DNA of 64,000 bases from positions 248,959,882-249,023,881 of the forward strand of contig CM041782.1 of assembly GCA_023374045.1 (NCBI GenBank). Reading direction: 5' to 3'. The notes under the pieces are model-generated. The model saw nothing but the letters and a program-made list of their open reading frames with translations, ran no database searches and was not told the DNA's origin. Made by a program: the position numbers and the translations under genes. The stretch comes from Limonium bicolor. Lineage: Eukaryota > Streptophyta > Magnoliopsida > Caryophyllales > Plumbaginaceae. This document shows, in pieces, positions 8,152 to 47,794 of the stretch. Each line of letters starts with the position of its first letter. Positions within the stretch are counted from its first letter, which is position 1.

Positions 8152-8654
8152 GCTGTGTTATGTGTGTGTCATTAGTCTGTTGGTAGTTAGTGGGTGCGTG
8201 TTTTAAAGACTATTTTTTTCTCTTGAATTCGTAGACTGACTCTGGCTGTGTGTTTGTGCTTGAAATACCCCGAAATTAAAAATAGTGATTAATTAGTTTA
8301 ATGAGTAATTTAGAAGCTTAATTATGTCTAAATAATCATGAGGGAACAAATCCCGAAGAAAACGGATCCTTAAAACGGATTAAAAGCACTAATGAACCTT
8401 AAAGCGTGTTTTTCAAGGAAACCGGGAAAACGTGACTTTAAGCGGGTCAAATAGACTCGTAATAATTTTGGTCAACTAAATAGCCATTAATAAACATTAG
8501 TGAAGGTCTAGGACCAATAAAATCAATAAAAGGAGAAAATAGTAAAAACTGTCAAAAACGGGAAGTTATGGGGTAAAAACATAAATAACCCAAACTTGTG
8601 TGTCCACTATTGAAAATAAAAATGTAAAATCAGTTTGTGTGTGTGGGTGCAGCC

Positions 8655-8830
8655 GATTTCACTTCCCTCTCTCACACTCTCTTATTCTCTTCTTATATGT
8701 AAAAGACAAAACAAATAAAAGCAAAAAGCAACTTACTTTATGACTCTCTCTCCTATCCCTCACAAACCCCACGTACTGCACCTCTTCTTTCTCTACTTTC
8801 TTCTTCCTTCTTCACTACTGCTATGGCAAT
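8655..8830 (+). promoter_or_regulatory. Likely core promoter/TSS region of LTR A (pyrimidine patch)
   Basis: A run of ctctctcacactctcttatt-type sequence, then a TATA-like cttatatgtaaaag at about 8692-8706, then more CT-rich sequence. LTR D has a similar CT-rich block at 55965-56035. Such Y-patches are common at plant transcription starts. Spliceable AAG|GTAAG sites follow in both. The start site itself is inferred. Confidence 0.4.
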
Positions 8831-10128
8831 TTGAAGAACCCACTCACAGCAGCTCACTTGTATCCAATCTTTGAAACCCCAAATCACCTCCAAATGCTAC
8901 AAAAATTATACCGTTGAATTCGTCTTGCTTTGGAGATCGTTCTACACCCTTCAAAAATCAAAAACCTTCAACTTCAATTTTGAGGGTATAATAGTTTTGG
9001 AGTCTAAGGAGCACCATTTGAAGCTTCATCTTCTTCTTCATGTTCTAAGGTAAGAAAAAGACCAAAGCTCTCTTCCGTTCCATTTTTCCTTGCAAAAACC
9101 AAAACTCACGTGATCACCATTGTTCCCCATCCAGCCGTTTTTGGTGTTCCACCTTAAGAGCTGAAGCATTGTCGTTTTCTACTCAAAACTCCATTAGAAG
9201 CTCAAGGTAAGACTTCCTAAGAGTTTTAAATGAATTCTCATAAGTTAGAGTTTAAAACCTACGTTTGAAATTTACTAGTTTTGTGTGTGTTTGGGTATGC
9301 CTTGTTACATGGTGTAGCTTGGCTAAATAAAATCAAGAAAACAAAGAAGTAAAGAGGAGCTGTAAAGGAGAAGGAAAGAAAGGAAAAGAAACAAGAACTC
9401 ATGGTAATGAAATGTCTCTGTACAGTTTTGATGTTTGTGTATGTATAAGTGCATTGCTTTAGCAATGGTTTAAAACCACCGTAGCAATAGGAAAGGAATG
9501 GGTATATTAATGTGAATGGTATTTGTAGTTTGAAGCTTTTGAAAACAAGAAAATAATATGCTAAGTGTAAATGTTAAGTGTGCAGTAGGTGTTAGAATTT
9601 TGTGTGGGAATGGTGTGTATATTGAGCAGGTTGTGAGCTATGTTGAGTGTGCAAAATTATGTGGTGAGAACACTTAGAAATGTAGGGAACCTATGTCAAA
9701 ATTTGGTTAGAAATTAGAGACTTGGTTATTGTTAGAAAAGAATGAAACAGAGAGGTTTGTAGAGAAGAAAAGAATGAGATTTTCACTTGTTTTGTAACAG
9801 GAGGAAGAGATGTAGATGAGTGGAGTTAGAAATGGTGTAATGGGAGGTGTTGAACTAAGTTATGCTAGGTTGAGAGTCATTTACCTATTGGGAAGAAGAA
9901 GGGAAAAATCTGTTACATTGGTTGAAGAAGAAAACTGCAATAGAGGGAAAAATTTAGCAGTAAAAATATGTAAGTTGACAGACAAAGTTATAGGTTAGAT
10001 TAGGGTAGTTTAAAATGCTTAATCAATGCCAAAACATGCTAGATTATATGTAGGAATATTAGGGAAGAGATTGGTAGAAGTTTGGAGTTGAAACTAGTTC
10101 AAAAACGCATTTATTTTACAAATCTATA

Positions 10129-10391
10129 GGTGGTCCGGGTCTGTAAACCGGTATAGATACCCGGACCATACAGAAAAGGTGACAGAATGTTATATCGATG
10201 GAGTGGTCCGGGTTTACAAACTAGGACACTAACCCGGACCACCCCTAAATCATACCCATGAATTATACAAAGCATGTGGTCCGGGTTTGTAAAGGAGTAC
10301 ACCAACCCGGACCATACAAAAAACATACCCGAGACTTATACAAGGTGGTGGTCCGGGTTCGTAAACCCGGACAATGACCCGGACCACCTCA
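10129..10391. repeat. Hairpin array in LTR A (four units)
   Basis: Four units of roughly 65 bp each read GGTCCGGGT, about 15-20 variable bases, then ACCCGGACC; clear pairs are near 10130-10166, 10205-10240, 10270-10313 and 10349-10386. Spacers contain 'tatacaa' words. The second copy in the 3' LTR (20660-20920) has the same four units, with changes in some arms. Confidence 0.88.
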
Positions 10392-12041
10392 ATTTTTGTA
10401 CAGAACCTATTTTAAAGCTAATCTAAGGTAGGGTAATAAAGGGTAATGATAGTATAAGATAATTAAGACATGATTAATGATGTTTAAAGGTCATTAAGGC
10501 CATAAACAAGCTTAGAAAATAATTGTAAGTAAATAACCTAAGTACTTGTATTTGAATAACAATGAAATAGTAAGTATAAACCAGGAAATATTAGGGAAAT
10601 AAATAGTGAGGTTAAGTATGAATAATTAACCACCCAATTGTATGTATATGATAGGACTTGAATTGTGAACACCGGAGGAAAGTCGGTTACAAGTACAACG
10701 GTGAATGGTATGAACTTCTCATGCCCCGTATGCTACCTTGGTTACTCTGATTTGTGTGTTGTGTGCTAATTGATCACCAAATAAGATAAATGCATGAATC
10801 GGAATTATTATGCTTACTTGTGAATACATGATGTTGTTCCTTGTTTGGATATTTTCTTAAATAATAGTTTGTATAATTCATGAAATGTATGGATGAATAT
10901 GAGTGTGTGTATGCATGATATTTTGTATTGTTACCGAATGTTATTGTGATTGGACATCTAACTGATTCCTAACAAGCTAACCAATCTAACTTAATAAATT
11001 GGTAATTAAATTGGAATGAGTAGAAGTCCGATATAGTTTTGGCCACGCGTGAGGAGGCGGAGTCACAAGAGGTTGGCTCCAATTCCTGGCTCTTAACTGG
11101 TCCACGGCCTAAACCCCTTAAATGGGTAGCATCCTGGATTGGTGAGCCGAGTAAAACCCGGTGGTGGGACTGTGTAGTCCCTGCCCGGAGGTCATACCGA
11201 CTTAACATGAGTAAAAGTAAGTAAGTAAGAATGAGTAAACAAGTATGGTAAAGTAAGTAAGTAAAGTAAGAGAAAGTATTGTGTAATGAGTAAAAGAGTA
11301 ATAAGCATCCGATTAACCCGGATGTGTAATTTGGCTAACCCTTGTGAAGGTAAGTGTTGTGTATGCTATTGTAATGCTATTTGACTTATGTATTGTATTG
11401 TATATGATTGTATGTTGTATGTAAAGCATGTATGTATGTATGAAATTAATGAACCGCATGTACAGTCGACCTTAAATAGTCGGTGTACCCTAGTTAGCAC
11501 GCGGTATACGCGAAGTTTATATGCAGCTTTTTGCTGAGCCCCTTGGGGCGATGTTTTTATATGTACAAGCCCTCGAGACGGGTGAAGACTATGAAGAGCT
11601 TAAGTTGATTTCTTTTTCTCTGTAATTAATGAATTGTGAAAGGTGTACTATGTTGTACACGGCTATAGCTTTTTGTTAGCCGGTGTACCATGGGGTACAC
11701 CCTTTTTGGATAATGAAAGTACTAGGAGATGGTATAGATGAGTAGTTGGTAGAAACTCATTACTTTTGGGAAGATTGAAAAGGAATGTAATTAACGATAC
11801 TTGATACTCGGTAATCGAGCAATGTAAGTATGTGATCTTTTGTATTGGTATTTAATGTAGTAGCTCGGTATATCTAGACATCAGACTGTGACTGTAAGTA
11901 GTGTAAGCCTAGCTAGCCGTATGGGCGGTTAGCGGCGTTGTATCACCCGCCGTAGTAGTAGTATTTCTGCTGCGACGTAGTAGGATAATTAGGGCGATTA
12001 GGCGGTAAGTAAAGGATTAGCGGTAAGGGTGTTACAAAAAG

Positions 12042-12069
12042 TGGTATCAGAGCGTAGTTACGCTCCGAT
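12042..12069 (+). other. Primer-binding site and PBS hairpin of Gypsy A
   Basis: TGGTATCAGAGCG at 12042-12054 matches the initiator tRNA-Met PBS. ATCAGAGCG (12046-12054) pairs with CGCTCCGAT (12061-12069) across a 6-base loop, with one G-T-type mismatch; in B, C and D the arms are perfect. Confidence 0.88.
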
Positions 12070-12262: not shown

Positions 12263-13732
12263 ATGTCAGGACGAGGCCGAGGCCGAACTAGAGGTGAGAC
12301 CTCAGATGGGCCAGGTGCGTAGACGATAGCAGAGATCGTGACCCTCACGGTAGCACAGATGCTACCTCAAGTAATCACGGCCATGCAAAAAACCCAACAA
12401 AACCAACAGAACCGAATGGGACCAATCCCGCCCCCTCCACCCAGAGAAGCAAACTGGGTAAAAGTTGTAGCGGAACTCCGACCTCCCTGCTTTAGAGGCA
12501 AGAGTGATCCGGCTAAGCTAGAGGCCTATATCTTCGAGATGGAGACGACATTTGAAACCCTTGAAGCTCCTACTGGAGTTCGAGTTAGAGTAGCGGCTTA
12601 CTACCTAAAGGATGCAGCCATGGATTGGTGGAAATTGATCAAGAACGAGCATGTCGATGACCCCACCTTCGACTAGGAATCCTTCACAGCCCTCCTTCGA
12701 TCCAAATACTACCCTGAACACGTCAAAACAAGAAAAAGACTTGAGCTTGATGCTTTGAGAATGACAGAGAAGATGTCTGTCGATGAGTACTACCATACCT
12801 TCACCTCTCTTCTATGTCTACTACCCGACCTTGGGTACACCGGCCAGGTGTTGGTCGATCGCTTCTATGGCGGTCTGAGCCATCGCCTTCGGTACGGCAT
12901 GGGCTACACCAGATTTACCTCCCTTCAGGTAAACTTTGGTTTAAACCCTTAGTACTATTGTAAATCCTTAAATCTTTACCTTACCTTCTTTCTAAATAAG
13001 AATCCCGGCTAACACCTGAAACTTTAGGAGTGTTATCACGTGGCATCTCACGTTGAGATCACTTGCCAACTAAGGGATGAAGAAACCGCGCTTAAACGCA
13101 AGGCCAACAACAAGAATACTAGTGGCGAGGAGAAGAACCAAGGTAAGAGCTGGAAAAAGAAGAAGGGGAAGTTCTTTCAACAAACCCAAAAGAACTTCCC
13201 AAGTGAGAGCAGTGCCCAGGAGAAGGGCAAACCAGTTGAGCTTCTTCAACTTGGTTCTTTTGCACTGGTGGCTGCGAAGCCACTGAGATCACACCCACCT
13301 AAGGGTAAACTTCAATTCCTACTTCGTATTTGTATAAGTATCATAATTAGTATTCCCGCACCATTGTGCTAACCCTCTAAGCCTTAGGTTCTGGCTCCGG
13401 TTTCACCAAGAACTACTCAGACGGCCGCACATATGTGTGCAGAAAGTGCAACCAAGACCCTCCCGGCCTAGATTGCTATGGGAGAGAAATCCGGTGCTAC
13501 AACTGTTAGAAGCCCGGACACCGAGCCAACATGTGCCTAGAGATTGCCAAGCCCAAAAGGAACTTCCAAAGCTACAAGCAGAGGGAAGGCAAGGAGGTTG
13601 CATCTGGTGATGCACCAGCCCAGCAGGCCCCGCAGGGACAGGGATCCCGAGGTCCTCAGAAGGGCGCACCCCAGAGGCATCCTACCTTGCATATCATTGA
13701 CCGAGATGGGACCGGTTCTAAGTCCGGCCTAG
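12263..13732 (+). pseudogene. gag: Gypsy A gag, split by two introns, with stops
   Basis: Gag forms the particle shell around the element RNA. Exon 1 (12263-12928) opens with a Gly/Arg-rich tail (MSGRGRGRTRG) and has the retrotransposon gag core (DAAMDWW; later DEYYHTF). It carries TAG stops at 12320 and 12674. An intron with GT at 12929 and AG at 13027 leads to a Lys-rich exon 2 (13028-13314). A second intron (13315-13387) leads to exon 3 (13388-13732), which has a CRKC pair and a CCHC zinc knuckle (CYNC...GHRANMC) broken by TAG at 13507. Exon junctions are in frame (phase 0, then phase 1). The same introns occur in D and C, which is why I call them introns and not random gaps. Exon 3 ends in phase 1 and can join either 13887 or 14768. 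Confidence 0.75.
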
Positions 13733-13886: not shown

Positions 13887-14626
13887 GAAGCTTTAGTATC
13901 TGCTATCCGATACCTTCGAAACCAAATCAAGAAGAGATCGACATCACCAATCACTACTACACCAACGAGCAGTGTCAGGTCATCCGACGAGGTATGATTT
14001 TATTAAAGGAATACCTGACACCCGAAGCACAAATTGTAATTATTCGACGATGCAACGAACTAGGAACGGGTCCAGGAGGATTTTATACACCCGAATTCCC
14101 CGGTGGAGCGAAGATGAAGCTGAAGATGATATGCTTGGGAAAGGTCTGGAATCCTTATACCAAGACATACCAAGAGACACGAATACAAGACGGAGCGACG
14201 CCAACGACAATACCCCCAGAATTTCTTACACTTGTTACACAAGCAGTAGAACTTGCACAACAATGTGAAAATGATCCGATCCCCGCAATTGAAGCGGACC
14301 TTTGTATCGTTAACTTCTATGAGAAAGAAGAACGACTTGGGTTACGCCAAGACAAGAACGAGACAACAGAATCTCTTGAACAAGGAGTGCCCGTAGTGTC
14401 TCGGTCCATTGGTGACGACGCCGTATTTATGTATAGCGAGCAGAAGAGTGTGGACCGCGCAGAGAAATTGGTATTGAGATCAGGAGATGTCCTAATCATG
14501 GGTGGAGAATCTAGGATGCTGTATTACGGGATCAACAAGATCAAGTTGAATACGGTACCACCGGCAATAATAAATGCCACACACATGAAACCAGGACGCC
14601 TGAACCTTACCTTTAGGAAGTATTAA
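13887..14626 (+). pseudogene. AlkB-like Fe(II)/2-oxoglutarate dioxygenase exon of Gypsy A
   Basis: AlkB proteins use Fe(II) and 2-oxoglutarate to remove methyl groups from nucleic acid bases. After the acceptor at 13885-13886 the frame starts GSFSICYP, then RGMILLKEYL, GGFYTP, KMKLKMICLGKVWNP, CIVNFY, a jelly-roll core and GRLNLTFRKY before TAA at 14624-14626. This order matches plant ALKBH1-like proteins. The frame is open throughout, but the iron site is altered: the HxD histidine is Arg (LRQDKNE, codon 14345) and the distal His is Tyr (MLYYGI). Both C-terminal Arg residues of the RxxxxxR motif (RLNLTFR) remain. So this copy reads through but is probably inactive. It sits between gag and protease, where Tekay/Del elements normally have no gene. 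An upstream ATG at 13994 would give a 210-residue form lacking the first segment. Confidence 0.88.
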
Positions 14627-14695: not shown

Positions 14696-14701
14696 AATAA
14701 A
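14696..14701 (+). terminator. Polyadenylation signal after the AlkB exon of A
   Basis: AATAAA followed by GAG, 70 bp after the AlkB stop and 67 bp before the protease exon. D has AATAAAGAG in the same place (61700-61705), and C has AATAAGAG on its minus strand near 48680. Its conservation suggests that a short Gag-AlkB transcript could end here. Confidence 0.5.
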
Positions 14702-14767: not shown

Positions 14768-15339
14768 GTTGTGGACTCGGTACCGAAGGTAACCTGAGTA
14801 TCCTCACCGAAGCACAAGCTGGTAAAAGCGGCACCATCTTAACGGGAACCTTCCTAGTGAACGGCATTGAAGCCTCAGTGTTATTCGACTTCGGCGCCTC
14901 TCACACCTTCGTATCACCATATTTCGTGAAGAGGTTGGGGCTAGATACGGATGATCTACCGAATTTCCTAGTTACTCTCCCATCGAAGGAGCGAATACGA
15001 TGTACCAAATACTACAAATCAGCCACGATCGAAATCAAAGGCGAATCGTTTCCCATCTCCTTCATCGAGTTTAATGGGTTGGGATTCGATGTAATAGGCG
15101 GAATGAACTGGTTGGAGCGGCACAAGGGACGAATCCTCTGCGCCGAGCATCGATTGCTGCTCAAGAGTCCTTCTGGGGTTACTGTATCTTACCGCCAAAG
15201 ACCGAGAGAGCCTTCGACCACGGTCATTTCCGCTATGGCTATGTACGGGGAGCTTAGGAAGGGCAAAAAGTGTATCGTGTTATGTACAAGACCTAGGAGC
15301 GATCCAGGAGTTCAACCCCGATGTACCCATTGTATCTGA
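14768..15339 (+). pseudogene. Gypsy A protease exon (start of pol)
   Basis: Begins after a tcaatag acceptor in phase 1, the same phase as the AlkB exon. It contains GTFLVNGIEASVLFDFGASHTF, an aspartic protease active-site region in which the usual D-S/T-G is D-F-G, so catalysis is doubtful. It continues into the linker before RT ([22 protein letters not shown]) and ends early at a stop near 15337 because of a frame change. Family: retropepsin of Ty3/Gypsy elements, which cuts the polyprotein. Confidence 0.8.
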
Positions 15340-16190
15340 ATTCCTTGACGTGTTCCCTAAGGAGCTGCCCGGCATGCCACCTCAGAGAGCAGTAGAGTTT
15401 GAGATTGACCTCTTGCTAGGTACTGGTCCCATTGCTAGGGCACCGTACCGCATGGCGCCTGCAGAAATGGCAGAGTTAAAAGAGTAGTTACGTGACCTAC
15501 TGGACAAAGGGTTCATACGCTAGAGTGTATCACCTGGGGAGCACCGGTCCTCTTCGTGAAGAAGAAGGACGGTAGCCTCTCACTTTGTATTGACTACCGC
15601 GAGCTGAATGCGGTTATAGTCAAGAATAAATACCCATTGCCACTCACGACCTATTCGACCAGCTGAAAGGAGCATCAGTCTTCTCCAAGATCGACCTCCG
15701 TTCTGGGTATCATCAGATTGCTATTAGAGAGCAAGACATAGAGAAAACGGCATTCTGTACCAGATATGGCCACTACGAATTCACAGTCATGTCATTCGGT
15801 TTGTCAAACGCACCAGCAAAGTTCATGGACCTTATGAATTGACTATTCAGTGAGCAGCTGGACACTTCAGTTGTAGTATTTATTGATGACATCCTTGTAT
15901 ACTCCAAATCAGTAGAAGAACATGAAATTCAATTGAGGAAAGTACTTGAGACACTGCGCGAGAACCAGCTGTATGCGAAGTTCTTCAAATGCGAGTTCTG
16001 GCTAGATCGGGTATCATTCCTTGGTCATGTCATCTCGAGCGCAGGCATTTCAGTTGACCCTTCAAAGATAGAAGCTGTACGATCATGGCCTAGATCCAAG
16101 ACTATTACCGACATTAGGAGCTTTCTTGGTCTAGCCGGTTACTACCGGAGATTTGTAAAGGACTTCTCAAAAGTCGCTAAGCCCCCATGA
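15340..16190 (+). pseudogene. Gypsy A reverse transcriptase, with stops and frameshifts
   Basis: Fragments of the RT palm and fingers are readable across several frames: [31 protein letters not shown] then TAG near 15485, a short deletion near 15520 ([14 protein letters not shown] region), [26 protein letters not shown] then TGA, and the catalytic box [12 protein letters not shown] (about 15873-15908). The last part (15933-16190) has the conserved SFLGHVIS and [17 protein letters not shown] blocks. The copy is clearly non-functional. Confidence 0.85.
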
Positions 16191-16839: not shown

Positions 16840-18132
16840 GCGTCCCCCAAAGCAATGCTGAGCTAAGGGATCGCATCCTACGAGAGTCACACAGTTCTAC
16901 ATTGTCAGTTCACCCAGGAGCCTCCAAAATGTACAAAGACATGAAGAGGTACTTCTGGTGGTCAGGAATGAAATCAGATGTGATAGAGTATGTATTGAGA
17001 TGCTTAACATGCCAGAAAGTAAAGTTTGAACATCGTAGACCGGGCGGAATGGTACAATCGATGCCAGTTCTGGAGTGGAAATTTCACGATATCTCCATGG
17101 ATTTTATTGTAGGACTCCCACCTACTGTGGGAGGACTCGTCATGATCTGGGTTGTAGTCGATCGCCTCACCAAGGTTGCTAGATTCATACCGATGAAGGA
17201 CACCTGGAAGGTAGTGAAGCTCGCAGAGCTATTCGACAGGGAGATTATCAGACACCACGGAGTCCCGAAGACCATTGTATCTGGCCGCGACACCAGATTT
17301 CTTTCGAGATACTAGAGAGCTACACGGGAAGCGTTGGGTACAGAATTGAAGCTGAGCACCACCTTCCATCCACAGACCGACGGTCAGACAGAAAGGACCA
17401 TCTAGACACTGGAGGACATGCTTAGGGCATGTGCCTTAGATTTTCAAGGGAGTTGGTTAGATAAGCTTCATTTTATCGAGTTTTTGTACAACAATAGCTA
17501 TCACGCTTTGATTAAGATGTCGCCTTTCCAAGCCCTATATGGTAGACCTTGCCGTACACCCTTGTGTTGGGATGAGTCAAGAGAAGCGGTCATCATAGGA
17601 CCGGAGTATTTAGAACAAGTCCAAGCGGAAGTGCAACAAATCCGAGCCAATATGAAGGCAGCCCAAGATAGACATAAATCCTATGCGGATGTGAGACGAC
17701 GCGACCTTGAGTTTGTCGTGGGCGACCAAGTGTTCTTGCGCGTTTCACCTATGAAGGGCGTATTCCGTTTTGGTCAGAAGGGCAAGCTGAGCCCAAAGTT
17801 TGAAGGGTCGTACACCATCACTGAGAGAGTTGGATATGTAGCCTATAGGTTAGCTTTACCTGAGGACTTGGGGCGTGTCCATGATGTCTTTCATGTGTCA
17901 CAACTCAAGAAGTGCATTTGATCTTTCTCATGTCCTAGAGCCTGAGAGACTATCCATTGAGCCGACCATGAGATATGTCGAAACCCCGGTGAGAATCCTT
18001 GATAGGAAGACCGGAGACACTCGCCATAAGTCTATACGAATGGTGAAGGTCCTATGGTCAAACCATGATGTCGAAGAAAAGACATGGGAGTTAGAAGACA
18101 CCATGAAGGTGAAGTACCCACAGTTATCATAG
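16840..18132 (+). pseudogene. Gypsy A integrase with C-terminal chromodomain-like segment
   Basis: Contains the zinc-binding [17 protein letters not shown]...CLTC block, the catalytic core with ISMDF, SGRDTRF (in place of SDRDxRF) and TDGQTER followed by a TAG, and the GPY/F-type region (FQALYGRPCRTPLCW, GKLSPKFEGSYTI). A frame change near 17920 leads to 17925-18132, which has HVLEPE and a tail MVKVLWSNHDVEEKTWELE. Such a tail is the chromodomain-like end of Tekay/Del elements, which is thought to guide insertion to heterochromatin. Stops near 17313 and 17401 and the frame change make it non-functional. Confidence 0.85.
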
Positions 18133-18606: not shown

Positions 18607-19798
18607 TGAAATACCCCGTAATTAAAAATAGTGATTAATTAGGCTAATGAGTAATTTAGAAGCTTAATTATGTCTAAATAATCATGAGGGAACAAATCCC
18701 GAAGAAAACAGATCCTTAAAACGGATTAAAAGCACTAACGAACCTTAAAGCGCGTTTTTCGAGGAAACCGAGAAAACGTGACTTTAAGCGGGTCAAATAG
18801 ACTCGTAATAATTTTGGTCAACTAAATAGCCATTAATAAACATTAGTGAAGGTCTAGGACCAATAAAATCAACAAAATGAGAAAATAGTAAAAACTGTCA
18901 AAAACGGGAAGTTGTGGGGTAAAAACATAAATAACCCAAACTTGTGTGTCCACTATTGAAAATAAAAATGTAAAATCAGTTTGTGTGTGTGGGTGCAGCC
19001 GATTTCACTTCCCTCTCCCACACTCTCTTATTCTCTTCTTATATGTAAAAGACAAAACAAATAAAAGCAAAAAGCAACTTACTTTATGACTCTCTCTCCT
19101 ATCCCTCACAAACCCCACGTACTGCACCTCTTCTTTCTCTACTTTCTTCTTCCTTCTTCACTAAAGCTATGGTGATTTGAAGAACCCACTCATAGCAGCT
19201 CACTTGCATCCAATCTTTGAAACCCTAAATCACCTCAAATGCTACAAAAATATATACCGTTGAATTCATCTTGCTTTGGAGATCGTTCTACACCCTTCAA
19301 AAATCAAAAACCTTCAACTTCAATTTTGAGGGTATAATCGTTTTGGAGTCTAAGGAGCACCATTTGAAGCTCCATCTTCTTCTTCATGTTCTAAGGTAAG
19401 AAAAAGACCAAAGCTCTCTTCTTTTCCATTTTTCCTTGCAAAAACCAAAACTCACGTGAACACCATTGTTCCCCATCCAGCCGTTTTTGGTGTTCCACCT
19501 TGAGAGCTGAAGCATTGTCATTTTCTACTCAAAAACTCCATTAGAAGCTCAAGGTAAGACTTCCTAAGAGTTTTAAATGAATTCTCATAAGTTAGGGTTT
19601 AAAACCTGTGTTAGAAATTTACTAGTTTTGTGTGTGTGTGGGTATGCCTTGTTACATGGTGTAGCTTGGCTAAATAAAATCAAGAAAACAAAGAAGGAAA
19701 GAGGAGTTGTAAAGGAGAAGGAGAGAAAGGAAAAGAAACAAGAACTCAAGGTAATGAAATGTCTCTGTACAGTTTTGATGTTTGTGTATGTATAAGTG

Positions 19799-19972
19799 CA
19801 GGGGCGGAGCCAGAAATATAAGTTGAGGGGGTCAAAGACAGAATTATAAAAAATTAGGGGGTGTTTTTACTAAATTTTTCTAAAAAAAAATTTTTTTACA
19901 CTACAAATTATGTAATTTAACAAAGTTAGGGGGTGTTTTGCTCCCTCCAGGCAAAGCCTGCCTCCGCCACTG
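19799..19972. mobile_element. hAT-type MITE in the 3' LTR of A
   Basis: 174 bp with imperfect inverted ends CAGGGGCGGAGCCAG and (right, reverse complement) CAGTGGCGGAGGCAG. It is flanked by the 8-bp duplication tataagtg (19791-19798 and 19973-19980). The empty site is visible in the 5' LTR at about 9440-9454. The 8-bp duplication and CAG ends fit non-autonomous hAT elements. Confidence 0.92.
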
Positions 19973-20654
19973 TATAAGTGCATTGCTTTAGCAATGGTTT
20001 AAAACCACCATAGCAGTAGGAAAGGAATGGGTATATTAATGTGAATGGTATTTGTAGTTTGAAGCTTTTGAAAACAAGAAAATAATATGCTAAGTGTAAA
20101 TGTTAAGTGTGCAGTAGGTGTTAGAATTTTGTGTGGGAATAGTGTGTATATTGAGCAGGTTGTGAGCTATGTTGAGTGTGCAAAATTATGTGGTGAGAAC
20201 ACTTAGAAATGTAAGGAACCTATGCAAAAATTTGGTTAGAAATTAGAGACTTGGTTGTTGTTAGAAGAGAAAGAAACAGAGAGGTTTGCAGAGAAGAAAA
20301 GAATGAGATTTTCACATGTTTTGTAACAGGAGGAAGAGATGTAGATGAGTAGAGTTAGAAATGGTGTAATGGGAGGTTTTGAACTAAGTTATGCTAGGTT
20401 GAGAGTCATTTAGCTATTGAGAAGAAGAAGGGAAAAATATGTTACATTGGTTGAAGAAGAAAACTGCAACAAAGGGAAAAATTTAGTAGTAAAAATATGT
20501 AAGTTGACAGACAAAGTTATAGGTTAGATTAGGGTAGTTTAAAATGCTTAATCAATGCCAAAACATGCTATATTATATGTAGGAATATTAGGGAAGAGAT
20601 TGGTAGAAGTTTGGAGTTGAAACTAGTTCAAAAACACATTTATTTTACAAATCT

Positions 20655-20925
20655 GTAGGTGGTCCGAGTCTGTAAACCGGTACAGATACCCGGACCATAC
20701 AGAAAAGGCGACAGATTGTTATATCAATGGAGTGGTCTGGGTTTACAAACTAGGACACTAACCCGGACCACCCCTAAATCATACCCGTGAGTTATACAAA
20801 GCATGTGGTTCGGGTTGTAAAGGAGTAAACAAACCCGGACCATACAAAAAACATACCCGAGACTTATACAAGGTGGTGGTTCGGGTTTGTAAACCCGGAC
20901 AGTAACCCGAACCACCTTAATTTTT
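20655..20925. repeat. Hairpin array, second copy in the 3' LTR of A
   Basis: The four GGTCCGGGT/ACCCGGACC units of the 5' LTR are repeated here with changes in some arms (ggtccgagt, ggtctgggt, ggttcgggt). One late unit keeps pairing after changes on both sides (ggttcgggtt / aacccgaacc). Confidence 0.85.
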
Positions 20926-22085
20926 GTACAAAACCTATTTTAAAGCTAATCTAAGGTAGGGTAATGAAGGGTAATGATAGTATAAGATAATTAAGACATG
21001 ATTAATGATGTTTAAAGGTCATTAAGGCCATAAAAAAGCTTAGAAAATAATTGTAAGTAAATAACCTAAGTACATGTATTTGAATAACAATTAAATAGTA
21101 AGTATAAACCAGGAAATATTAGGGAAATAAATAGTGAGGTTAAGTATGAATAATTAACCACCCAATTGTATGTATATGATAGGACTTGAATTGTGAACAC
21201 CGGAGGAAAGTCGGTTACAAGTACAACGGTGAACGGTATGAACTTCTCATGCCCCGTATGCTACCTTGGTTACTCTGATTTGTGTGTTGTGTGCTAATTG
21301 ATCACCAAATAAGATAAATGAATGAATCGGAATTATTATGCTTACTTGTGAATACATGATGTTGTTCCTTGTTTGGATATTTTCTTAAATAATAGTTTGT
21401 ATAATTCATGAAATGTATGGATGAATATGAGTGTGTGTATGCATGATATTTTGTTTTGTGACCAAATGTTATTGTGATTGGACTTCTAGCTGATTCCTAA
21501 CAAGCTAACCAATCTAACTTAATAAATTGGTAATTAAATTGGAATGAGTAGAAGTCCGATATAGTTTTGGCCACGCGTGAGGAGGCGGAGTCACAAGAGG
21601 TTGGCTCCAATTCCTGGCTCTTAACTGGTCCACGGCCCAAACCCCTTAAATGGGTAGCATCCTGGATTGGTGAGCCGAGTAAAAACCGGTGGTGGGACTG
21701 TGTAGTCCCTGCCCGGAGGTCATACCGACTTAACATGAGTAAAAGTAAGTAAGTAAGAATGAGTAAACAAGTATGGTAAAGTAAGTAAAGCAAGAGAAAG
21801 TATTGTGTAATGAGTAAAAGAGTAATAAGCATCCGATTAACCCGGATGTGTAATTTGGCTAACCCTTGTGAAGGTAAGTGTTGTGTATGCTATTGTAATG
21901 CTATTTGACTTATGTATTGTATTGTATATGATTGTATGTTGTATGTAAAGCATGTATGTATGAAAATTGAACCGCATGTACAGTCGACCTTAAATAGTCG
22001 GCGTACCCTAGTTAGCACGCGGTATATGCGAAGTTTATATGCAGCTTTTTGCTGAGCCCCTTGGGGTGATGTTTTTATATGTACA

Positions 22086-22585
22086 NNNNNNNNNNNNNNN
22101 NNNNNNNNNNNNNNNNNNNNNNNNNNNNNNNNNNNNNNNNNNNNNNNNNNNNNNNNNNNNNNNNNNNNNNNNNNNNNNNNNNNNNNNNNNNNNNNNNNNN
22201 NNNNNNNNNNNNNNNNNNNNNNNNNNNNNNNNNNNNNNNNNNNNNNNNNNNNNNNNNNNNNNNNNNNNNNNNNNNNNNNNNNNNNNNNNNNNNNNNNNNN
22301 NNNNNNNNNNNNNNNNNNNNNNNNNNNNNNNNNNNNNNNNNNNNNNNNNNNNNNNNNNNNNNNNNNNNNNNNNNNNNNNNNNNNNNNNNNNNNNNNNNNN
22401 NNNNNNNNNNNNNNNNNNNNNNNNNNNNNNNNNNNNNNNNNNNNNNNNNNNNNNNNNNNNNNNNNNNNNNNNNNNNNNNNNNNNNNNNNNNNNNNNNNNN
22501 NNNNNNNNNNNNNNNNNNNNNNNNNNNNNNNNNNNNNNNNNNNNNNNNNNNNNNNNNNNNNNNNNNNNNNNNNNNNNNNNNNNNN
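22086..22585. other. Assembly gap of exactly 500 N
   Basis: The gap lies in the 3' LTR of A between 'gtaca' and 'ggtcctcgag'. The 5' LTR reads 'gtacaagccctcgag' at the equivalent place, so no bases are missing by alignment. The gap is probably a fixed-size placeholder or hides an unassembled insertion. Frames reported across it are meaningless. Confidence 0.98.
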
Positions 22586-22674
22586 GGTCCTCGAGGCGGG
22601 TGAAGACTATGAAGAGCTTAAGTTGATTTCTTTTTGTCTGTAATTAATGAATTGTGAAAGGTGTACTATGTTGT

Positions 22675-22964
22675 TGTTAGTATATGATAGATATTTTCAG
22701 TTAGCCCAGTTTAACTTATTTTGAGAATTTTGTAAGTAGTCCTCTTGTAGTCTTGTTACCGTTAGCCCAGTATGAGTGTCTTGGTCTTTAAATAGGAGTG
22801 GGCTTGTCCACACTTATTAATCTCTTACGAGACAGTTGTACAGTTACAGTAATACATTCTACATTTCTTCTTCCTTCGACTGTCTCGACGCCCTATCGAT
22901 TTGGCTAGGGTTGTCTTTCTTGTTTTTCTGGCTGGATTAGAACAGAACTGTGAGGAATTTATCA
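22675..22964 (+). repeat. Copia 5' LTR
   Basis: 290 bp, TGTTAG...TTATCA. By eye it differs from the 3' LTR at three positions (about 1%). It contains a TATA-like ctttaaatagg near 22790. The PBS starts at the next base. Confidence 0.95.
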
Positions 22965-23090
22965 TGGTACCAGAGCAAAGATTCTGAGCTTTGTCTTACT
23001 TTTCGGTTCTCCGCCTTTAGTCACTCTCCTTTCTTTATTTTGTTTTCCAAATTCTTTCGCTCTCTTCCGTGCCGATAGCCATTGGCTCTC

Positions 23091-23987
23091 ATGTCGAACG
23101 ACTAAACAGGCGGCGATGGTAAGGATGCTCTCAAGATCGAGAGCGAGAAATCAGAGAATACGGGTGTTGACACCAACGACCCAATGTACCTCGAGGGTTC
23201 AGAGCAACCAGGCACAATTCTGGTGAACAAATTCGACGGTCGTGGTTTCGCATTATGGAAAATGCAGATGTCAATTGCTCTTGGGGCAAAGAATAAGATG
23301 GCGTTCATAGACGGAACCATTACAAGACCCAGTGATTTGAGCCAGACGTTTCGACAATGGAAGCGGTGTGATTCTATGGTGCGGGCCTGGCTTCTGATGG
23401 CACTGGAGAAGAAGATTGCAGATAGTGTTTTGTTTGCTCCCACTGCGGCTAAAATCTGGAGTGAGTTATACGGCAGATACGAGCAAGCTGATGGAACCAA
23501 GATTTATGATCTGGAGCAGCGTCTTGCGCTGGCTAACCAAGGAAGAGACAACATAGTCGACTACTTCACATGGGTCAAACATCTATGGGATGAAATAGAC
23601 GCGTACAACGTCATTCCCACCTGCACCTGTCAAGCCTGTACGTGTGACGCTTCCGGAAAATTCAACACCTTTGTAAAGGAAAAGAGGTTGATTCAGTTCC
23701 TCATGGGATTGAATGAAAAGTACAGCGTGGTGCGAGGGAATATCTTGATGAAGTCGCCACTCCCCACCGTCGACCAAGTGTTTTCACATCTGATACAAGA
23801 AGAAAGACAGAAAGGGCTGAAAAACGCAAGTTCAGCAGATGCAGGCTCTCTCTCATTTGCGTCAGAACAAAACAAGAAAGGGAGTTTTAGAAACCCTAAT
23901 TCCAGTACAAGGAAGACCACCCTTCAGTGTAGCCACTGCAACAAACTAGGGCACACCGAGGACCGGTGCTACCAAAAGATTGGCTAG
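23091..23987 (+). pseudogene. gag: Copia gag
   Basis: The likely start ATG at 23091 is followed by TAA at codon 5 (23103), after which the same frame is open to TAG at 23985. The protein has the Copia gag core (KFDGRGFALWKMQM; KIWSELYGRYEQ; LIQFLMGLNEKY) and one CCHC zinc knuckle (CSHCNKLGHTEDRC, near 23928-23970). It packages element RNA. An internal ATG at 23184 would give a 267-residue product without the N-terminal 30 residues. Confidence 0.9.
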
Positions 23988-26510
23988 CCGCAAGGTTGGC
24001 GAAACCCAAAATCAAGAAGAAGCACCGCTAATGCATCCGAGGTTATGGAACCCAAGGCAGATGAAGAACCAAGAAGCGAAACCAGAGATCCTTTCGGGGG
24101 GATACTTTCTCCTGATCAGATAACAAAGCTATACGACTATATCCGCGTTGCGCGACCGGAGGCCAAGAGGAATCAAAGTTCAGAAGCGGCCTGCTCATCC
24201 TGTTTTGTCGGTAGTTTTTCTGAACCTTATTCACATATTTGCTCAAACTCTGGAAACAATTTGCCCACAGATAAATGTTTGGAAACCGGTGCATCTTCTC
24301 CTTTTGATTATGTTGGAATGAGTAACATTAATGCATCTTGTCTGAACTACAAGACTAATTGTGCTAATTATGCTGATGTGAATAGTATTAAGGCACCTTA
24401 TTTAAATTGCAAAACTGGTAGAACTGCTCCATCCGTTGTTAAGAAAGGTTCTGGGTTGTGTGAAACTAATTCGTCTTCATGTGATTCTGATCTTTACTAT
24501 TGTCTGAAACATATTGATCACTTAAGCATGAATGCCACTGAGAAACACAATTTTTGTGACACTGATTGGATCCTAGATTCGGGAGCATCAGACCACATGT
24601 GTGGGAATTTAAACCTTTTTACTAATTATATTACATTGGATGAGCCCCACACTGTTGGGATGCCCGATGGGCACCCACAACTTGTAAAAATTATAGGAGA
24701 AATCAGGATTAATCCTTCTATCTTGTTAAAGAATGTTTTGTTTGTGCCAGCATTCAGGTTTAATCTAATCTCAATTAACAGACTTTGTGTTGATATGAAA
24801 GCAAGTTTTATTTTTGACTCTCGAATGTGCTCTTATCAGGACTATAAAGGTAGCAATGCTGTACAAATTGGGAAACTCAGCAGAGGTCTTTACATTTTGA
24901 ATTGTAGTTTTGATACAAGGAACTCTAGGATTTGTGATCCATTAGCATGTACCAATGAGGTTATTAGTGTGGGGTTTGACTGCAATGACAGGACTAGCCT
25001 TTGGCACCATAGGATGGGTCACATGCCAAAGGATAAACTTGTAAAACTTCATCTGATAGATCAATTGGAGAAAAATAAGCAATTTCTTTGTGAATCTTGT
25101 GCTAGATCCAAAAGCCATAGGCTACCATTTGGATCCGATTCTGTAAAAACTTATGATCTTTTTGAACTAATTCATGCTGATTTGTAGGGACCTTATAAAA
25201 TTAAAACCTATGACGGACATTCCTACTTCCTCACTTTGGTTGATGATAGGAGTAGAGCAACATGGACACATTTATGTTCTAGCAAATCTGAATCTTTTGA
25301 AATTATTATTCTCTTCTTTAAGATGATTGAGAATCAATTTAACAAAAGGGTCAAAATCCTAAGAACTGATAACGCATATGAACTTGGTAGCTCTAGGTAT
25401 GCTTCTGATTTCTTGAAAAACAATGGAATTCTCCATCAAACTACTTGTGTCCACACTCCGCAACAAAATGGAGTTGTGGAACGAAAGCATAGACATATCT
25501 TGGAAACTGGTAGGTCTCTGATGTTTCACTCAAAATTGCCCTTAAAATTCTGGGGTGACAGCATTCTCACTGCTACCTATCTCATTAATAGGATGCCTCT
25601 CAGTAGCATAAATGGTAAGAGTCCATATGAAATTGTGTATGGCACCAAACCTGATTACAACATTTTAAGGTGTTTTGGTTGCCTTTGTTATGGCAACATC
25701 AATAGACAGCAACATGACAAGTTTGCTTCTAAATGTTTTAAGGGTATTTTTCTAGGCTACCCCCAGGGAAATAAGGGGTACAAATTGTTGAACTTGGATA
25801 GTAATAAGGTGGAATTTAATAGAGACGTAATCTTTCATGAGAACATTTACCCATTTAGAGACGTTTCACATAAGGCTCAAGAAAGCAACTCTGAATCTGA
25901 ATCCTATTCTAACCTGTTTTCTTATGAGCATTTTGAGTTTGAAGATACTGCAGAAATCCCATCAGGACCCCGAGTGCAGTATGTCCCTGAGTTAGGCAAC
26001 CAGGAAAGAATCGAGGAGCAAAGGAACTCAGAGACAACCATGCCACTGGAAGGAAATGAAGGCCCTGAAGAAACTGTCCCTGATTCTGAACTGCCTGTCC
26101 ATGTCCCTGAATCCCAAAACATAGAACAAGAGAGAACAGTCAGACGCTCTTCAAGAGAAAGGAGCACACCAAAGTACCTTGAAGACTATGTGGTTGGACA
26201 CTCTACTACTCATCAATCAGATAAGTCAGCCTCTGATTATTTTTCTTTAATTTTGAACGATACAATGTCCAGATTGCCCTCTGTACATGCTGAAACTAGT
26301 GATGTGTGTGCTACTGTTTCTGATTTCATACAGCTTACTGATGATGACACCATAGTTTCTTCTAAACTGCCTAGGAATATTTTTTATGCTCTTTCTGCTG
26401 AAACCCTTGATCTGAATTGCTCTAATTCTGGGTCATATAAAGTGTCTGAACCTGTTTTATATACTGATGCTGTTAAAGACCAAAACTGGAGAAATGCCAT
26501 GCTTGAATAA
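23988..26510 (+). pseudogene. Copia protease and integrase, three in-frame stops
   Basis: Same frame as gag after the TAG at 23985. Readable parts: protease active-site WILDSGASDHM (near 24570-24600), the GAG-pre-integrase zinc region LWHHRMGHMP...CESCARSK (near 25000-25115), and the integrase core with ILRTDNAYE and NGVVERKHR. TAG at 25185 stands where a Trp codon is expected (HADL*GPY), and TAA at 26508 interrupts before RT. A variable acidic region (about 25870-26200) lies between integrase and RT. These enzymes process the polyprotein and insert the cDNA. Confidence 0.9.
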
Positions 26511-27978
26511 TTTAGAGCTTTAGAGAATAACAAAACATGGGATATAGTTGATTTACCGCTAGGAAAGAAGGCCATTAAGTGTAAATGGGTTTATAAGGTT
26601 AAGCTGCATGCAGATGGGTCATTGGAAAGGTATAAGGCTAGACTAGTGGCTAAAGGTTACACGCAAAAATATGGGATAGATTATTTGGAGACTTTTTCTC
26701 CAGTGGTGAAGTTCACTACTATCAAGGCTTTAGTTTCCATAGCTATCAAGAGGGGATGGGACATAGGGCAATTAGACATAAACAAAGCTTTTCTTCATGG
26801 GGAGTTGTATGAAGATGTGTTTATGGAAATACCCGAGGGGCATGAGTTAGAAGGGTCTGGTAAGGTTTGTAAGTTAAAGAAATCCCTTTATGGGCTGAAG
26901 CAGGCTTCCAGGCAGTGGCATGAGAAACTGAGTAGTTTTTTGAGAAATTTAGGTTTTAAACAATCCGCTAATGATTATTCTTTATTCATAAAGGACTCTG
27001 ATAATGGAATTTGTTTTCTGGTTGTGTATGTAGATGACATACTTGTGACAGGAAGTGATACTAATTTAATTAGAATGATTAAGATGGATCTAGACCGGAA
27101 GTTCAAAATCAAGGATCTGGGAAGACTAGGTCATTTTCTGGGTATGCAGTTTTTGCATAATGCAGAAGGTATTTTCATGTTACAGAAGGCTTATTGTGAT
27201 AATCTGGTAGCAGAATTTAAATGTTCTCATCTTAAAGCTGTTGTTAATCCATTGGATAATAACGTTAAGCTAAGGAAAAAATGTAGGTAAGGTTTTAGAC
27301 GATCCTAGTGTTTACAGGCGTCTAGTAGGCAAACTTAGTTTCCTTTCACACAGTAGACCAGATTTATGCTTTGCTATACAGGTTTTAAGTCAGTTTCTGG
27401 ATTCTCCTTCTGATTTACATTTTCAGGCAGCTTTGCATACATTAAGATATGTAAAAGGTACATCTGGTTATGGTCTTCTGTTTAATAATAAGAAAGATTT
27501 TCGTCTAGTTGCCTATTGTGATGCTGATTGGGCTAGTTGCCCGAACACCAGGCGTTCTGTGAGTGGTTATTTTATTTGTTTTGGTGGTAGTCCTCTGTCA
27601 TGGAAATCTAAGAAACAAACTTCAGTGGCTTTGTCTTCTGTAGAGTCAGAATATAGAGCCATGAGGCAAGTGACTGCTGAGCTCAGCTGGTTGACCAGAT
27701 TGTTAAGTGAGCTTGGAGTTGAGAGTGTAGAGCCGGTTCCCGTCAAGTCTGATAGTCAATCAGCCATACACATCGCCAGGAATCCAGTTCTGCACGAGCG
27801 TACGAAGCACATTGAGTTGGTCGTCCACTTTGTACAAGAAAAGCTGCAGGATGGGCTGATCTCGGTTGAGTTCGTTTCTTCGAAGGATCAGCTTGCTGAT
27901 CTACTGACAAAGGCCTTACCAGGCAGGCAGTATCCTATACTGATCAGGAAGATGGGTATGGGAACTGTGGGAAGCTGA
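26511..27978 (+). pseudogene. Copia reverse transcriptase and RNase H, frameshifted
   Basis: RT from about 26535 (KWVYKVKLHADGS, ARLVAKGYTQ, GQLDINKAFLHGEL, YGLKQASRQWH, and the catalytic VVYVDDILVTGSD near 27018-27060), open until TAA at 27288. A +1 frame change then leads to 27433-27978, the Copia RNase H (RLVAYCDADWASCPNTRRSVSGY, SVESEYRAM, SDSQSAIHIARNP, KDQLADLLTKALP). Domain order and motifs are typical; the element cannot make its own RT-RNase H fusion. Confidence 0.92.
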
Positions 27979-28035
27979 TTGTTTGGGTCATTGTTGACTT
28001 CAAATTATGCAACCCTTGCATAATTTGAGGGGGGC

Positions 28036-28325
28036 TGTTAGTATATGATAGATATTTTCAGTTAGCCTAGTTTAACTTATTTTGAGAATTTTGTAAGTAG
28101 TCCTCTTGTAGTCTTGTTACCGTTAGCCCAGTATGAGTGTCTTGGTCTTTAAATAGGAGTGGGCCTGTCCACACTTATTAATCTCTTACGAGACAGTTGT
28201 ACAGTTACAGTAATACATTCTACATTTCTTCTTCCTTCGACTGTCTCGACGCCCTATCGATTTGGCTAGGGTTGTCTTTCTTGTTTTTCAGGCTGGATTA
28301 GAACAGAACTGTGAGGAATTTATCA
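28036..28325 (+). repeat. Copia 3' LTR
   Basis: 290 bp, same ends as the 5' LTR. It is preceded by the polypurine tract gaggggggc at 28027-28035 and followed by gttgt. Confidence 0.95.
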
Positions 28326-28716
28326 GTTGTACACGACTGTAGCTTTTTGTTAGCCGGTGTACCATGGGGTACACCCTTTTTGGATAATGAAAGAACTAGG
28401 AGATGGTATAGATGAGTAGTTGGTAGAAACTCATTACTTTTAGGAAGATTGAAAAGCAATGTAATTAACTATACTTGATACTCGGTAATCCAGCAATGTA
28501 AGTATGTGATCTTTTGTATTGGTATTTAATGTAGTAGCTCGGTATATCTAGACATTAGACTGTGACTGTAAGTAGTGTAAGCCTAGCTAGCCGTATGGGC
28601 GGTTAGCGGCGTTGTATCACCCGCCGTAGTAGTAGTAGTAGTATTTCCGCTGTGACGAAGTAGGATAATTAGGGCGATTAGGCGGTAAGTAAAGGGTTAG
28701 CGGTAGGGGTGTTACA

Positions 28717-45183: not shown

Positions 45184-46392
45184 CTACTCGAAGAGTGCTG
45201 GAGACTTCGCACTCATGGAGTCTTCTAACTCCCATGTAGCCTCCTCCACGTCATGGTTCGACCAGAGAACCTTGACCATGCTAACGGTCTTGTTCCTAGT
45301 CTGCCTCATCTTCGTATCGAGGATGCGGAGTGGTACTTCTTCATATCGTAGAGCGGGGTCCAACTCTAAAGTCTCTGGCTCTAAAATGTGCGATGGGTGG
45401 GCCACATACCTCTTCAACTGTGAAACGTGAAAGACGTCATGCACCCTCCCGAGCTCTGCTGACAAATCCAGTCTATAGGCTAATGGGCCCACTCGCTCCT
45501 TAATCGCATATGGCCTAACATACTTCGGGCTCAATTTGCCCTTCTGCCCAAACCGGAAGATCCCCTTCATGGGTGACACTCGAAGGAATACTCTATCGTT
45601 AGTAGTAAACTCGATGTCCCTCCTCCTCGTGTCGGTGTATGAATTCTGCCGATCTTGGGCTACCTTCATGTTCTTACGAATCTGTAGGACATCCTCCTTG
45701 ATCTGCTCTAGGTACTCAGGTCCTAGAAGCGTAGTCTCACTGGCCTCGTCCCAGCATAAAGGAGTCCTACATGGTCTACCGTAAAGCGCCTGGAACGGTG
45801 GCATCTGAATAGATGAGTGGTAGTTGTTGATGTAGGCGAACTCTATCAGATATAATAGCTCTAACCAGCTCCCCTGAAAGTCTAAGGCACATGCTCTCAG
45901 CATGTCCTCCAGTGTCTGGATGGTCCTCTCACTCTGACCGTCGGTCTGAGGATGAAATGTCGTACGCAGCTTCAGCTTCGTACCCAAGGCTTCCTGAATC
46001 TGACCCCAGAATCTAGATAGGAAACGAGGATCTCTGTCAGACTCAATGGTCTTCGGTACACCATGGTGTCGGATCACCTCCTTTTGGAATAGGTCCGCCA
46101 ACTTCGGGACATTCCAGGTATCCTTCATAGCAATAAACTTTGCCACCTTCGTAAGACAATCTACAATGACCCAGATCGTGTTCAGTCCTCCCTTAGTCGG
46201 TGGGAGACCGACAACGAAATCCATCGAGATGTCCTCGAACTTCCAGCAAGGAATAGGCATGGACTGCACTAATCCACCGGGTCTCATGTGCTCAAACTTA
46301 ACCTTCTGACAGGTCAAGCATCTAGTCACAAAGTCGGCTACGTCCTTCTTCATCCCGCTCCACCAGAAATGGACCTTCAAGTCCTTGTACAT
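45184..46392 (-). pseudogene. Gypsy C integrase with chromodomain-like tail
   Basis: A 402-residue open frame, the best preserved pol part in the window. It has MYKDLKVHFWWSGMKKDV...CLTCQ (zinc region; the two His lie just upstream beyond a TAG near 46437), the DDE core (ISMDF, SDRDPRF, GQSERTIQ), FQALYGRPCRTPLCW, FGQKGKLSPKY and GRVHDVFHVSQLK. It ends with VKVLWSNHDVEEATWELE, the Tekay/Del-type chromodomain-like end. All three catalytic acidic residues are present. Confidence 0.9.
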
Positions 46393-46437
46393 CTTTGAAG
46401 AACCAGGGTGGACGGATAAGGACGAGCAATGAGCCTC

Positions 46438-47790: not shown

Positions 47791-47794
47791 TAGG

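What the first reader, a model, noticed from the sequence alone, without database searches (positions are those of the whole stretch)
13887..14626. AlkB-type dioxygenase captured by a Ty3/Gypsy retrotransposon family (copies in A, C and D)
Seen: three separate Tekay/Del-like elements (A 13887-14626, C 48744-49482, D 60863-61589) each have, between gag and protease, an AlkB-like domain with the order xFxICYP, PGMILL, GGFYTP, KMKL.MMCLGKDW.P, HQD, YHGI, LNLTFR. Known: this pattern fits plant ALKBH1-like nucleic-acid demethylases, and AlkB domains also occur in some plant RNA virus replicases. Inferred: the family took up a host AlkB gene long ago and has kept it, perhaps to remove methyl marks from its RNA or cDNA. 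I know of no described LTR retrotransposon with this cargo, but could not search.
Basis: partly seen in the sequence, partly recalled or inferred. Interest (0 to 1): 0.96.

Follow-up and report, generated by a model that had tools for sequence, protein, structure and literature searches.

The report
Retrotransposon with spliced-in AlkB demethylase exon
A family of plant jumping genes carries, between its capsid gene and its protease gene, a conserved enzyme domain related to the plant nucleic-acid demethylase ALKBH1; it is predicted to make the enzyme by alternative splicing as a tail on its capsid protein, likely to remove methyl marks from its own RNA or DNA.

Summary
Confirmed, with one correction. 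Window elements A, C and D are chromodomain-bearing Ty3/Gypsy elements with an AlkB domain between gag and protease. A's exon hits PF13532 (E 6.6e-38); its closest solved relative is rice OsALKBH1. It is a family trait: the best 150 scored genome hits all pass the cut-off, and the one random element that kept gag and PR has it at the same place. A has lost both iron histidines, but 28 of 29 full-length copies keep the catalytic residues. dN/dS is 0.11-0.18, like protease and gag, and retroelement-type AlkBs form one clade outside 36 plant host proteins: one old capture. New here: AlkB looks like an alternative terminal exon. From one donor at the end of gag, intron retention would give Gag, the AlkB acceptor Gag-AlkB, and the protease acceptor Gag-Pol, with matching phases and AT-rich introns. 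There are no RNA data. This one is a separate variant: different AlkB subfamily, element lineage, position and layout. Activity and substrate are untested.

The parts
8261..12036 (+). Element A, 5' LTR (TGAAATACC...GTGTTACA); target-site copies GTGCT (8256-8260) and GTGTT (28717-28721), 4 of 5 bases equal
   Evidence: 96.7% identical to the 3' LTR in the two long pieces; edges read directly
12042..12053 (+). Primer binding site TGGTATCAGAGC (initiator-Met tRNA type, recalled)
12323..12928 (+). Element A gag exon 1 (capsid), broken by a stop; predicted donor after 12928
   Evidence: Ty3_capsid 1.9e-4, below the curated cut-off; Retrotrans_gag 1.2e-10
13028..13304 (+). Element A gag exon 2 (predicted)
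   Evidence: AG|GAGTG acceptor and AAGG|GTAA donor read directly
13388..13732 (+). Element A gag exon 3 with zinc-knuckle region (one stop inside); shared donor G|GTAAAT at 13733; in-frame stop two codons into the intron
13887..14626 (+). Element A AlkB exon (acceptor ATAG|GAAGC, ends with TAA): predicted alternative terminal exon; both iron histidines changed (RQD, YYG)
14696..14701 (+). AATAAA downstream of the AlkB stop (possible poly(A) signal)
14768..15177 (+). Element A protease exon, first part (acceptor ATAG|GTTGTGG), RVP_2
15311..15992 (+). Element A reverse transcriptase (in pieces)
16884..18126 (+). Element A integrase and chromodomain (in pieces)
18607..28716 (+). Element A 3' LTR in two parts (18607-22085 and 28326-28716) split by a run of N and a nested Copia element
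48744..49482 (-). Element C AlkB exon (frameshifted), acceptor ATAG|GAGAC
45187..51343 (-). Element C from primer binding site (51343) through gag (51130-49663), AlkB, PR (48478-48140), RT, to integrase-chromodomain (46437-45187)
60863..61589 (+). Element D AlkB exon (frameshift near 61284, in-frame stops), acceptor TTAG|GAACC
59034..64000 (+). Element D from primer binding site (59034) through gag (59496-60724), AlkB, PR (61845-62183), RT (62320-62993), into integrase, which continues to the right of the window

Best explanation
A lineage of chromodomain-bearing Ty3/Gypsy retrotransposons holds a plant ALKBH1-type AlkB domain between gag and protease, predicted to be an alternative last exon that is spliced onto Gag and would act as a Gag-tethered demethylase on the element's own RNA or cDNA. 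Shown by sequence: the domain, its fixed place, its conserved catalytic residues in the family, low dN/dS, and one clade of retroelement-type AlkBs outside the sampled plant host genes. Inferred from sequence: one phase-1 donor at the end of gag exon 3 has three outcomes. If the intron is kept, translation stops a few codons later, giving Gag. If the donor joins the AlkB acceptor, the product is capsid-nucleocapsid-AlkB with its own stop. If it joins the protease acceptor further on, AlkB is skipped and Gag-Pol is made; full-length unspliced RNA stays as the genome. Inferred from relatives: AlkB in the particle, next to packaged RNA and newly made single-stranded cDNA, would oxidise N-methyl groups (m6A or m1A in RNA, 6mA in single-stranded DNA). 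That would relieve host marking of the transcript or damage that blocks copying.
For: Domain: Pfam; rice OsALKBH1 5.2e-64; AlphaFold model of the L003 copy with mean pLDDT 90, best fold matches 5xoi/5xeg at TM 0.92-0.93 by target length. Family trait: the best 150 scored genome hits are all over the cut-off, 149 of 150 without a stop inside the matched part, on all 8 large sequences. The one random element that kept gag and PR carries AlkB. Constraint: AlkB dN/dS 0.114-0.180 against PR 0.094-0.286, gag 0.148-0.329, RT 0.049-0.272. HQD, YHG and RxxxxxR all kept in 28 of 29 full-length copies. One capture: 12 retroelement-type rows one clade at 100/99, 36 host-type proteins another at 97/95, one liverwort outgroup; the PR+RT tree of 14 rows gives the same four subfamilies. 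Splicing: a pattern count on 31 copies finds the donor in 30, the AlkB acceptor in 30, the PR acceptor in 27, with an AG by eye in two more (D, L005). Both joins are free of stops over the stretch read in 18 of 31. Predicted introns are 32-34% GC (37% for the 70 bases before exon 2) against 46-62% for exons. In-frame stop 1-6 codons past the donor in 27 of 29 copies. Exons 2+3+AlkB open in 8 of 23 and exons 2+3+PR in 5 of 22. The random copy repeats the layout. In 27 of 29 copies no in-frame Met lies between the preceding stop and the FxIC start, so that start needs upstream translation. Substrate: ALKBH1 acts on 6mA in single-stranded or unpaired DNA (PMC10469495 abstract and passages); AtALKBH9B demethylates ONSEN RNA and lets it mobilise (as told in a passage of PMC12786077).
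Against: No transcript was seen: none of the 120 rows listed of 653 protein hits carries a gag or zinc-knuckle Pfam label next to AlkB. The 28 fetched copies come from the best AlkB scorers, so openness and dN/dS are biased towards intact AlkB; even so, 7 of these 28 have a stop in the AlkB exon, mostly before the core domain, and 15 of 23 are not open across gag exons 2-3 and AlkB. All three window copies are damaged and A lacks both iron histidines. The pattern count of splice sites has no chance control and was drawn up after reading copies. AATAAA after the AlkB stop is in 24 of 31 copies but missing in 5 of 6 of one subfamily and in C, so a separate poly(A) site is not general. L023 has lost the AG of the PR acceptor. 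Activity, packaging and substrate are untested.
Confidence: 0.62

Rival explanations
1. AlkB is made as a separate protein (own start inside the exon, or from an unspliced or internally started RNA), as in the orchid elements where it is a separate ORF; the gag-AlkB splice frame match is incidental.
For: The orchid AlkB is a separate ORF2 (PMC9289625). The AlkB exons hold inner Met codons.
Against: The inner Met codons cut into the domain or drop the FxIC start, which hosts share (PFDIC), and no in-frame Met precedes that start in 27 of 29 copies. Donor, AlkB acceptor and AT-rich intron recur in the four subfamilies read.
Confidence: 0.2
2. AlkB is not aimed at the element's own nucleic acid but at the host: like rice ALKBH1 it acts on chromatin or R-loops (6mA, H3K27me3 balance), or on host RNAs, to weaken silencing of the element.
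For: Rice ALKBH1 loss raises 6mA in R-loops, and the protein opposes PRC2 binding (PMC10469495, abstract and passages). The element has a chromodomain, and its AlkB is ALKBH1-type rather than ALKBH5-type.
Against: Fusion to capsid and nucleocapsid (inferred) would place it in particles. No nuclear signal was looked for.
Confidence: 0.25
3. The AlkB pieces are independent recent captures of a host gene, or passive cargo without function.
For: Copies A, C and D are damaged, and A lacks both iron histidines.
Against: One clade, same insertion site and splice frame, low dN/dS, and high-scoring copies on every large sequence.
Confidence: 0.03
4. The exon works mainly as a splicing or frame device that sets the Gag to Gag-Pol ratio, and the enzyme activity is secondary.
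For: Three predicted outcomes from one donor. In Ogre elements an intron is spliced out of only part of the transcripts to allow the whole polyprotein (PMC6317226 passage).
Against: A ratio device does not need low dN/dS over 246 codons or the catalytic residues.
Confidence: 0.1

Closest known systems
Phalaenopsis Gypsy elements with a 2-ODD/AlkB ORF (Gypsy_Pa_2799; PMC9289625, parts 1-5 of 7 read)
   Same: Plant Ty3/Gypsy LTR retrotransposon with a captured AlkB-family dioxygenase and conserved Fe and 2-oxoglutarate residues.
   Different: Orchid: ALKBH5-like, Tat/Ogre clade, 25 kb, PBS antisense to tRNA-Arg, AlkB at the C-terminus of a separate 565-aa ORF2 beside a single ORF1 with all Gypsy domains, called recent. 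Here: ALKBH1-like, chromodomain element with an iMet-type PBS, AlkB between gag and protease as a predicted alternative last exon, spread over several subfamilies. The 2022 screen of 121 angiosperm genomes found the domain in two Phalaenopsis species only.
Plant ALKBH1C/1D-like host proteins and rice OsALKBH1 (5xeg, 5xoi)
   Same: About 50% identity over the domain, same fold, same FxIC start, HxD...H and RxxxxxR pattern.
   Different: The retroelement domain is one short exon without the long host N-terminus, is predicted to join Gag, and forms its own clade.
[quoted passage not shown]
   Same: Partial splicing that decides which polyprotein is made.
   Different: As described there, one intron and no AlkB exon. 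Here gag itself has two further predicted introns, and the third donor has two alternative acceptors.
AlkB domains of Alpha-, Betaflexiviridae and Closteroviridae (named in PMC9289625)
   Same: An AlkB carried by a replicating genetic element.
   Different: RNA viruses; not compared here by sequence.

Membership tests
Ty3/Gypsy chromovirus | gag-PR-RT-IN order | tested here: met
Ty3/Gypsy chromovirus | chromodomain at the integrase C-terminus | tested here: met
   PF00385 in A (1.4e-4) and C (4.2e-4), both below Pfam's curated cut-off (22.2 and 20.6 against 25.1 bits); D by a match to C's integrase-chromodomain frame
Ty3/Gypsy chromovirus | LTRs, target-site copies and primer binding site | tested here: met
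   complete for A only; 5-bp target site with one mismatch
Tekay/Del clade | placement in an RT tree with reference elements | not tested
AlkB family (PF13532) | profile match, HxD...H and RxxxxxR, AlkB fold | tested here: met
   copy A itself has lost both histidines
ALKBH1-type (plant ALKBH1C/1D) | closer to ALKBH1 than to other AlkB subfamilies | tested here: met
   no tree with all subfamilies was built; ALKBH5 is absent from the 21 PDB sequence hits at E 0.001 and from the 50 fold matches listed
AlkB demethylase | demethylase activity | not testable with these tools
   needs an enzyme assay
Orchid AlkB-Gypsy (Gypsy_Pa_2799 kind) | ALKBH5-like domain | tested here: not met
Orchid AlkB-Gypsy (Gypsy_Pa_2799 kind) | AlkB in a separate ORF beside one ORF1; tRNA-Arg primer site | tested here: not met
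   AlkB lies between gag and PR, PBS TGGTATCAGAGC
Intron-containing LTR retrotransposon (Ogre-like splicing) | spliced transcripts observed | not testable with these tools
   only sequence signs:

The most novel reading that the evidence does not exclude
An old, very abundant chromovirus lineage runs a three-way splicing switch from one donor (Gag, Gag-AlkB, Gag-Pol) and carries its own Gag-tethered ALKBH1-type demethylase into the particle, captured before or outside the sampled angiosperm radiation and kept since; it would be a second, independent AlkB capture by LTR retrotransposons, aimed at DNA or RNA methyl-adenine in the replication complex.
Probability: 0.5. Interest if true: 0.88.

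Novelty: new variant of a known kind. Interest (0 to 1): 0.74.

Why it matters
Two unrelated Gypsy lineages with two different AlkB subfamilies would mean that erasing methyl-adenine is repeatedly useful to plant retrotransposons, which makes epitranscriptomic or 6mA control of transposons directly testable. If the Gag fusion is real, it would also be a natural case of an enzyme delivered into virus-like particles by alternative splicing.

Tried and rejected
Independent recent captures: rejected. ALKBH5-type like the orchid case: rejected. Gag-AlkB fusion already in the protein database: no row of the 120 listed of 653 has a gag or zinc-knuckle Pfam label; of the new rows I read three sequences, and the high scorers P0122 and P0123 are plant proteins with tandem AlkB domains. 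LTR dating of two other copies: the L003 pair gave only an inverted or unrelated match and its number is void; for L009 only a 1-kb piece matched (9 mismatches, not used). A first set of exon joins held one base too many or found no join and is void; one search replaces it. Host identity: the DUF455 stretch in the window is 55-66% identical to the 120 listed of 556 hits, mostly eudicots where named, so no species is claimed. The copy count is not known: 38325 is the number of first-look candidates, of which 150 were scored.

Full report
What is there. The exon at 13887-14626 is open from its acceptor to a TAA and matches PF13532 over the whole profile (E 6.6e-38). Copies C (minus strand) and D are the same domain with frameshifts and stops. 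Each sits in a Ty3/Gypsy element: gag and zinc knuckle before it; protease, RT, integrase and chromodomain after it. Element A is complete: LTRs 96.7% identical, a primer binding site TGGTATCAGAGC right after the LTR, and its 3' LTR split by a nested Copia element. In two of its three LTR pieces, 94 mismatches in 3308 sites give about 1.1 million years at a recalled rate of 1.3e-8. A's own AlkB has lost both iron histidines and is probably dead.

It is a family trait. The window lies in a 2.92-Gb genome (G000) with eight large sequences. A PF13532 search had 38325 first-look candidates, of which the best 150 were scored; all 150 exceed the cut-off and 149 have no stop inside the matched part. 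I read 28 of these 150 (8 loci, 20) plus the 3 window copies. This gave three more chromovirus bodies. One (L042/L041) keeps gag and protease and carries AlkB between them. Two (right of the window, and L040) show no gag, protease or AlkB upstream of RT and say nothing. So the unselected count is 1 of 1 testable element.

What kind of AlkB. The best solved relative is rice OsALKBH1 (5.2e-64). A model of the L003 copy with mean pLDDT 90 matches OsALKBH1 structures at TM 0.92-0.93 by target length, then E. coli AlkB. HQD, YHG and RxxxxxR are all kept in 28 of 29 full-length copies, A being the exception. In a tree with 36 host-type proteins (35 from named angiosperms, one unnamed, taken from the listed best hits) and one liverwort protein as outgroup, the 12 retroelement-type rows form one clade (100/99) and the hosts another (97/95). 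Five rows of the first tree (three retroelement, two unnamed host-type) were left out of this second one. Eight of the 12 rows are from this genome; four (P0002-P0005) are unnamed database proteins that I take to be relatives. The capture therefore seems older than, or from outside, the sampled angiosperms. No gymnosperm host was sampled, the outgroup branch is long (0.79), and fast evolution could mislead. A protease+RT tree of 14 rows gives the same four subfamilies, with weak order among them.

Selection. Nei-Gojobori dN/dS (ratio of sums, between and within subfamilies) is 0.114-0.180 for AlkB, against 0.094-0.286 for protease, 0.148-0.329 for the capsid part of gag and 0.049-0.272 for RT. 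Pairs with dS under 0.02 or saturated were dropped, codons with stops were skipped, and the AlkB rows (29) leave out C and D. Synonymous distances between subfamilies are mostly above 1 and partly saturated. Because copies were chosen for good AlkB scores, the AlkB value may be too low. Of the 28 fetched copies 7 have a stop in the AlkB exon, mostly in the short part before the core domain.

How it would be expressed. Gag is split by predicted introns. At the end of gag exon 3 lies a donor (G|GTA) in phase 1 in 29 of the 30 copies where a gag frame was found; C gave phase 0 at another GT. The AlkB exon starts after AG|GA and the protease exon after AG|GT or AG|GC. A pattern count on 31 copies, drawn up after reading them and without a chance control, found the donor in 30, the AlkB acceptor in 30 and the protease acceptor in 27 (misses L014 for the donor, L027 for the AlkB acceptor, and L005, L023, C and D for the protease acceptor). 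By eye D and L005 have the AG with another following base, and L023 has lost it. Both joins, over part of exon 3 with 90 bases of AlkB or 150 of protease, are free of stops in 18 of 31 copies (best of the GT sites tried). With gag exons 2 and 3 whole, the join to AlkB is open in 8 of 23 copies and to 100 residues of protease in 5 of 22; 8 further copies could not be scored. Reading on into the intron, with phase 1 assumed, meets a stop after 1-6 codons in 27 of 29 copies, 15 and 20 in the other two. The predicted introns are 32-34% GC (37% for the 70 bases before exon 2) against 46-62% in exons, as in plant introns (recalled). The random copy shows the same donor, acceptors and an early stop. 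In 27 of 29 copies no in-frame Met lies between the preceding stop and the FxIC start; the two exceptions are shifted there. AATAAA follows the AlkB stop in 24 of 31 copies, chance 0.18 per copy by shuffling, but related copies are not independent and one subfamily mostly lacks it. So three products from one donor are predicted: Gag, Gag-AlkB and Gag-Pol. No RNA was seen; a database search with the joined query listed no protein with a gag or zinc-knuckle label in its top 120 of 653.

What it would do. [quoted passage not shown] For RNA, a review states that AtALKBH9B demethylates ONSEN RNA and releases it for mobilisation, and that orchid elements carry an AlkB (PMC12786077, passages). Tethered to capsid and nucleocapsid, the AlkB here would meet the element's RNA and first-strand cDNA. 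This step is inference.

What is known. PMC9289625 (parts 1-5 of 7 read) screened 121 angiosperm genomes and found the domain only in two Phalaenopsis species, in Tat/Ogre elements of 25 kb with an ALKBH5-like separate ORF that has m6A demethylase activity in vitro. The present family differs in AlkB subfamily, element lineage, position and layout, so it is an independent variant. My searches for other reports were 30 of 35 listed; 15 of 31; 20 of 63; none; 2 of 2; 10 of 149; none. By title and start of abstract no other listed paper reports an AlkB domain in an LTR retrotransposon; preprints and most subscription papers are not held. Other papers: PMC6317226 and PMC7264820 by passages, PMC11963269 by passages.

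Limits. The host species is not identified. The Tekay label, copy number, host donor gene, transcripts, enzyme activity and packaging are untested.

Noticed in passing
window 22675-28325: A Copia element with 290-bp LTRs (99% alike) is nested in the 3' LTR of element A; Copia gag, integrase and RVT_2 domains are present in several ORFs.
   Followed up: partly
window 41258-41950: An open stretch whose C-terminal part matches DUF455 (PF04305, 4.7e-29), 55-66% identical to plant proteins; possibly a host gene exon.
   Followed up: partly
window 35995-37788 (minus): An RVT_1 reverse transcriptase and a zf-RVT domain, LINE-like.
   Followed up: no
window 22086-22585: A run of 500 N; the cluster of ORFs in several frames on both strands at 21890-22643 spans it and is an artefact.
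   Followed up: partly
window 517 (minus): A fourth primer binding site TGGTATCAGAGC after an LTR-like end; no gag, AlkB, PR or RT hit lies to its left within 20 kb.
   Followed up: partly
G000:C1:497439466-497470353: Four AlkB hits about 10.1 kb apart, all with open 253-aa frames and equal scores: probably a tandem array of the element.
   Followed up: no
P0122 (Artemisia annua) and P0123 (Aegilops tauschii): Annotated plant proteins with two AlkB domains in tandem; the second domain of P0123 looks partly degraded.
   Followed up: no
8.7-11.7 kb right of the window (L034/L036), window-based 72702-75720, minus: A more distant chromovirus with an open 776-aa RT-IN-chromodomain frame but no gag, protease or AlkB found upstream.
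   Followed up: partly
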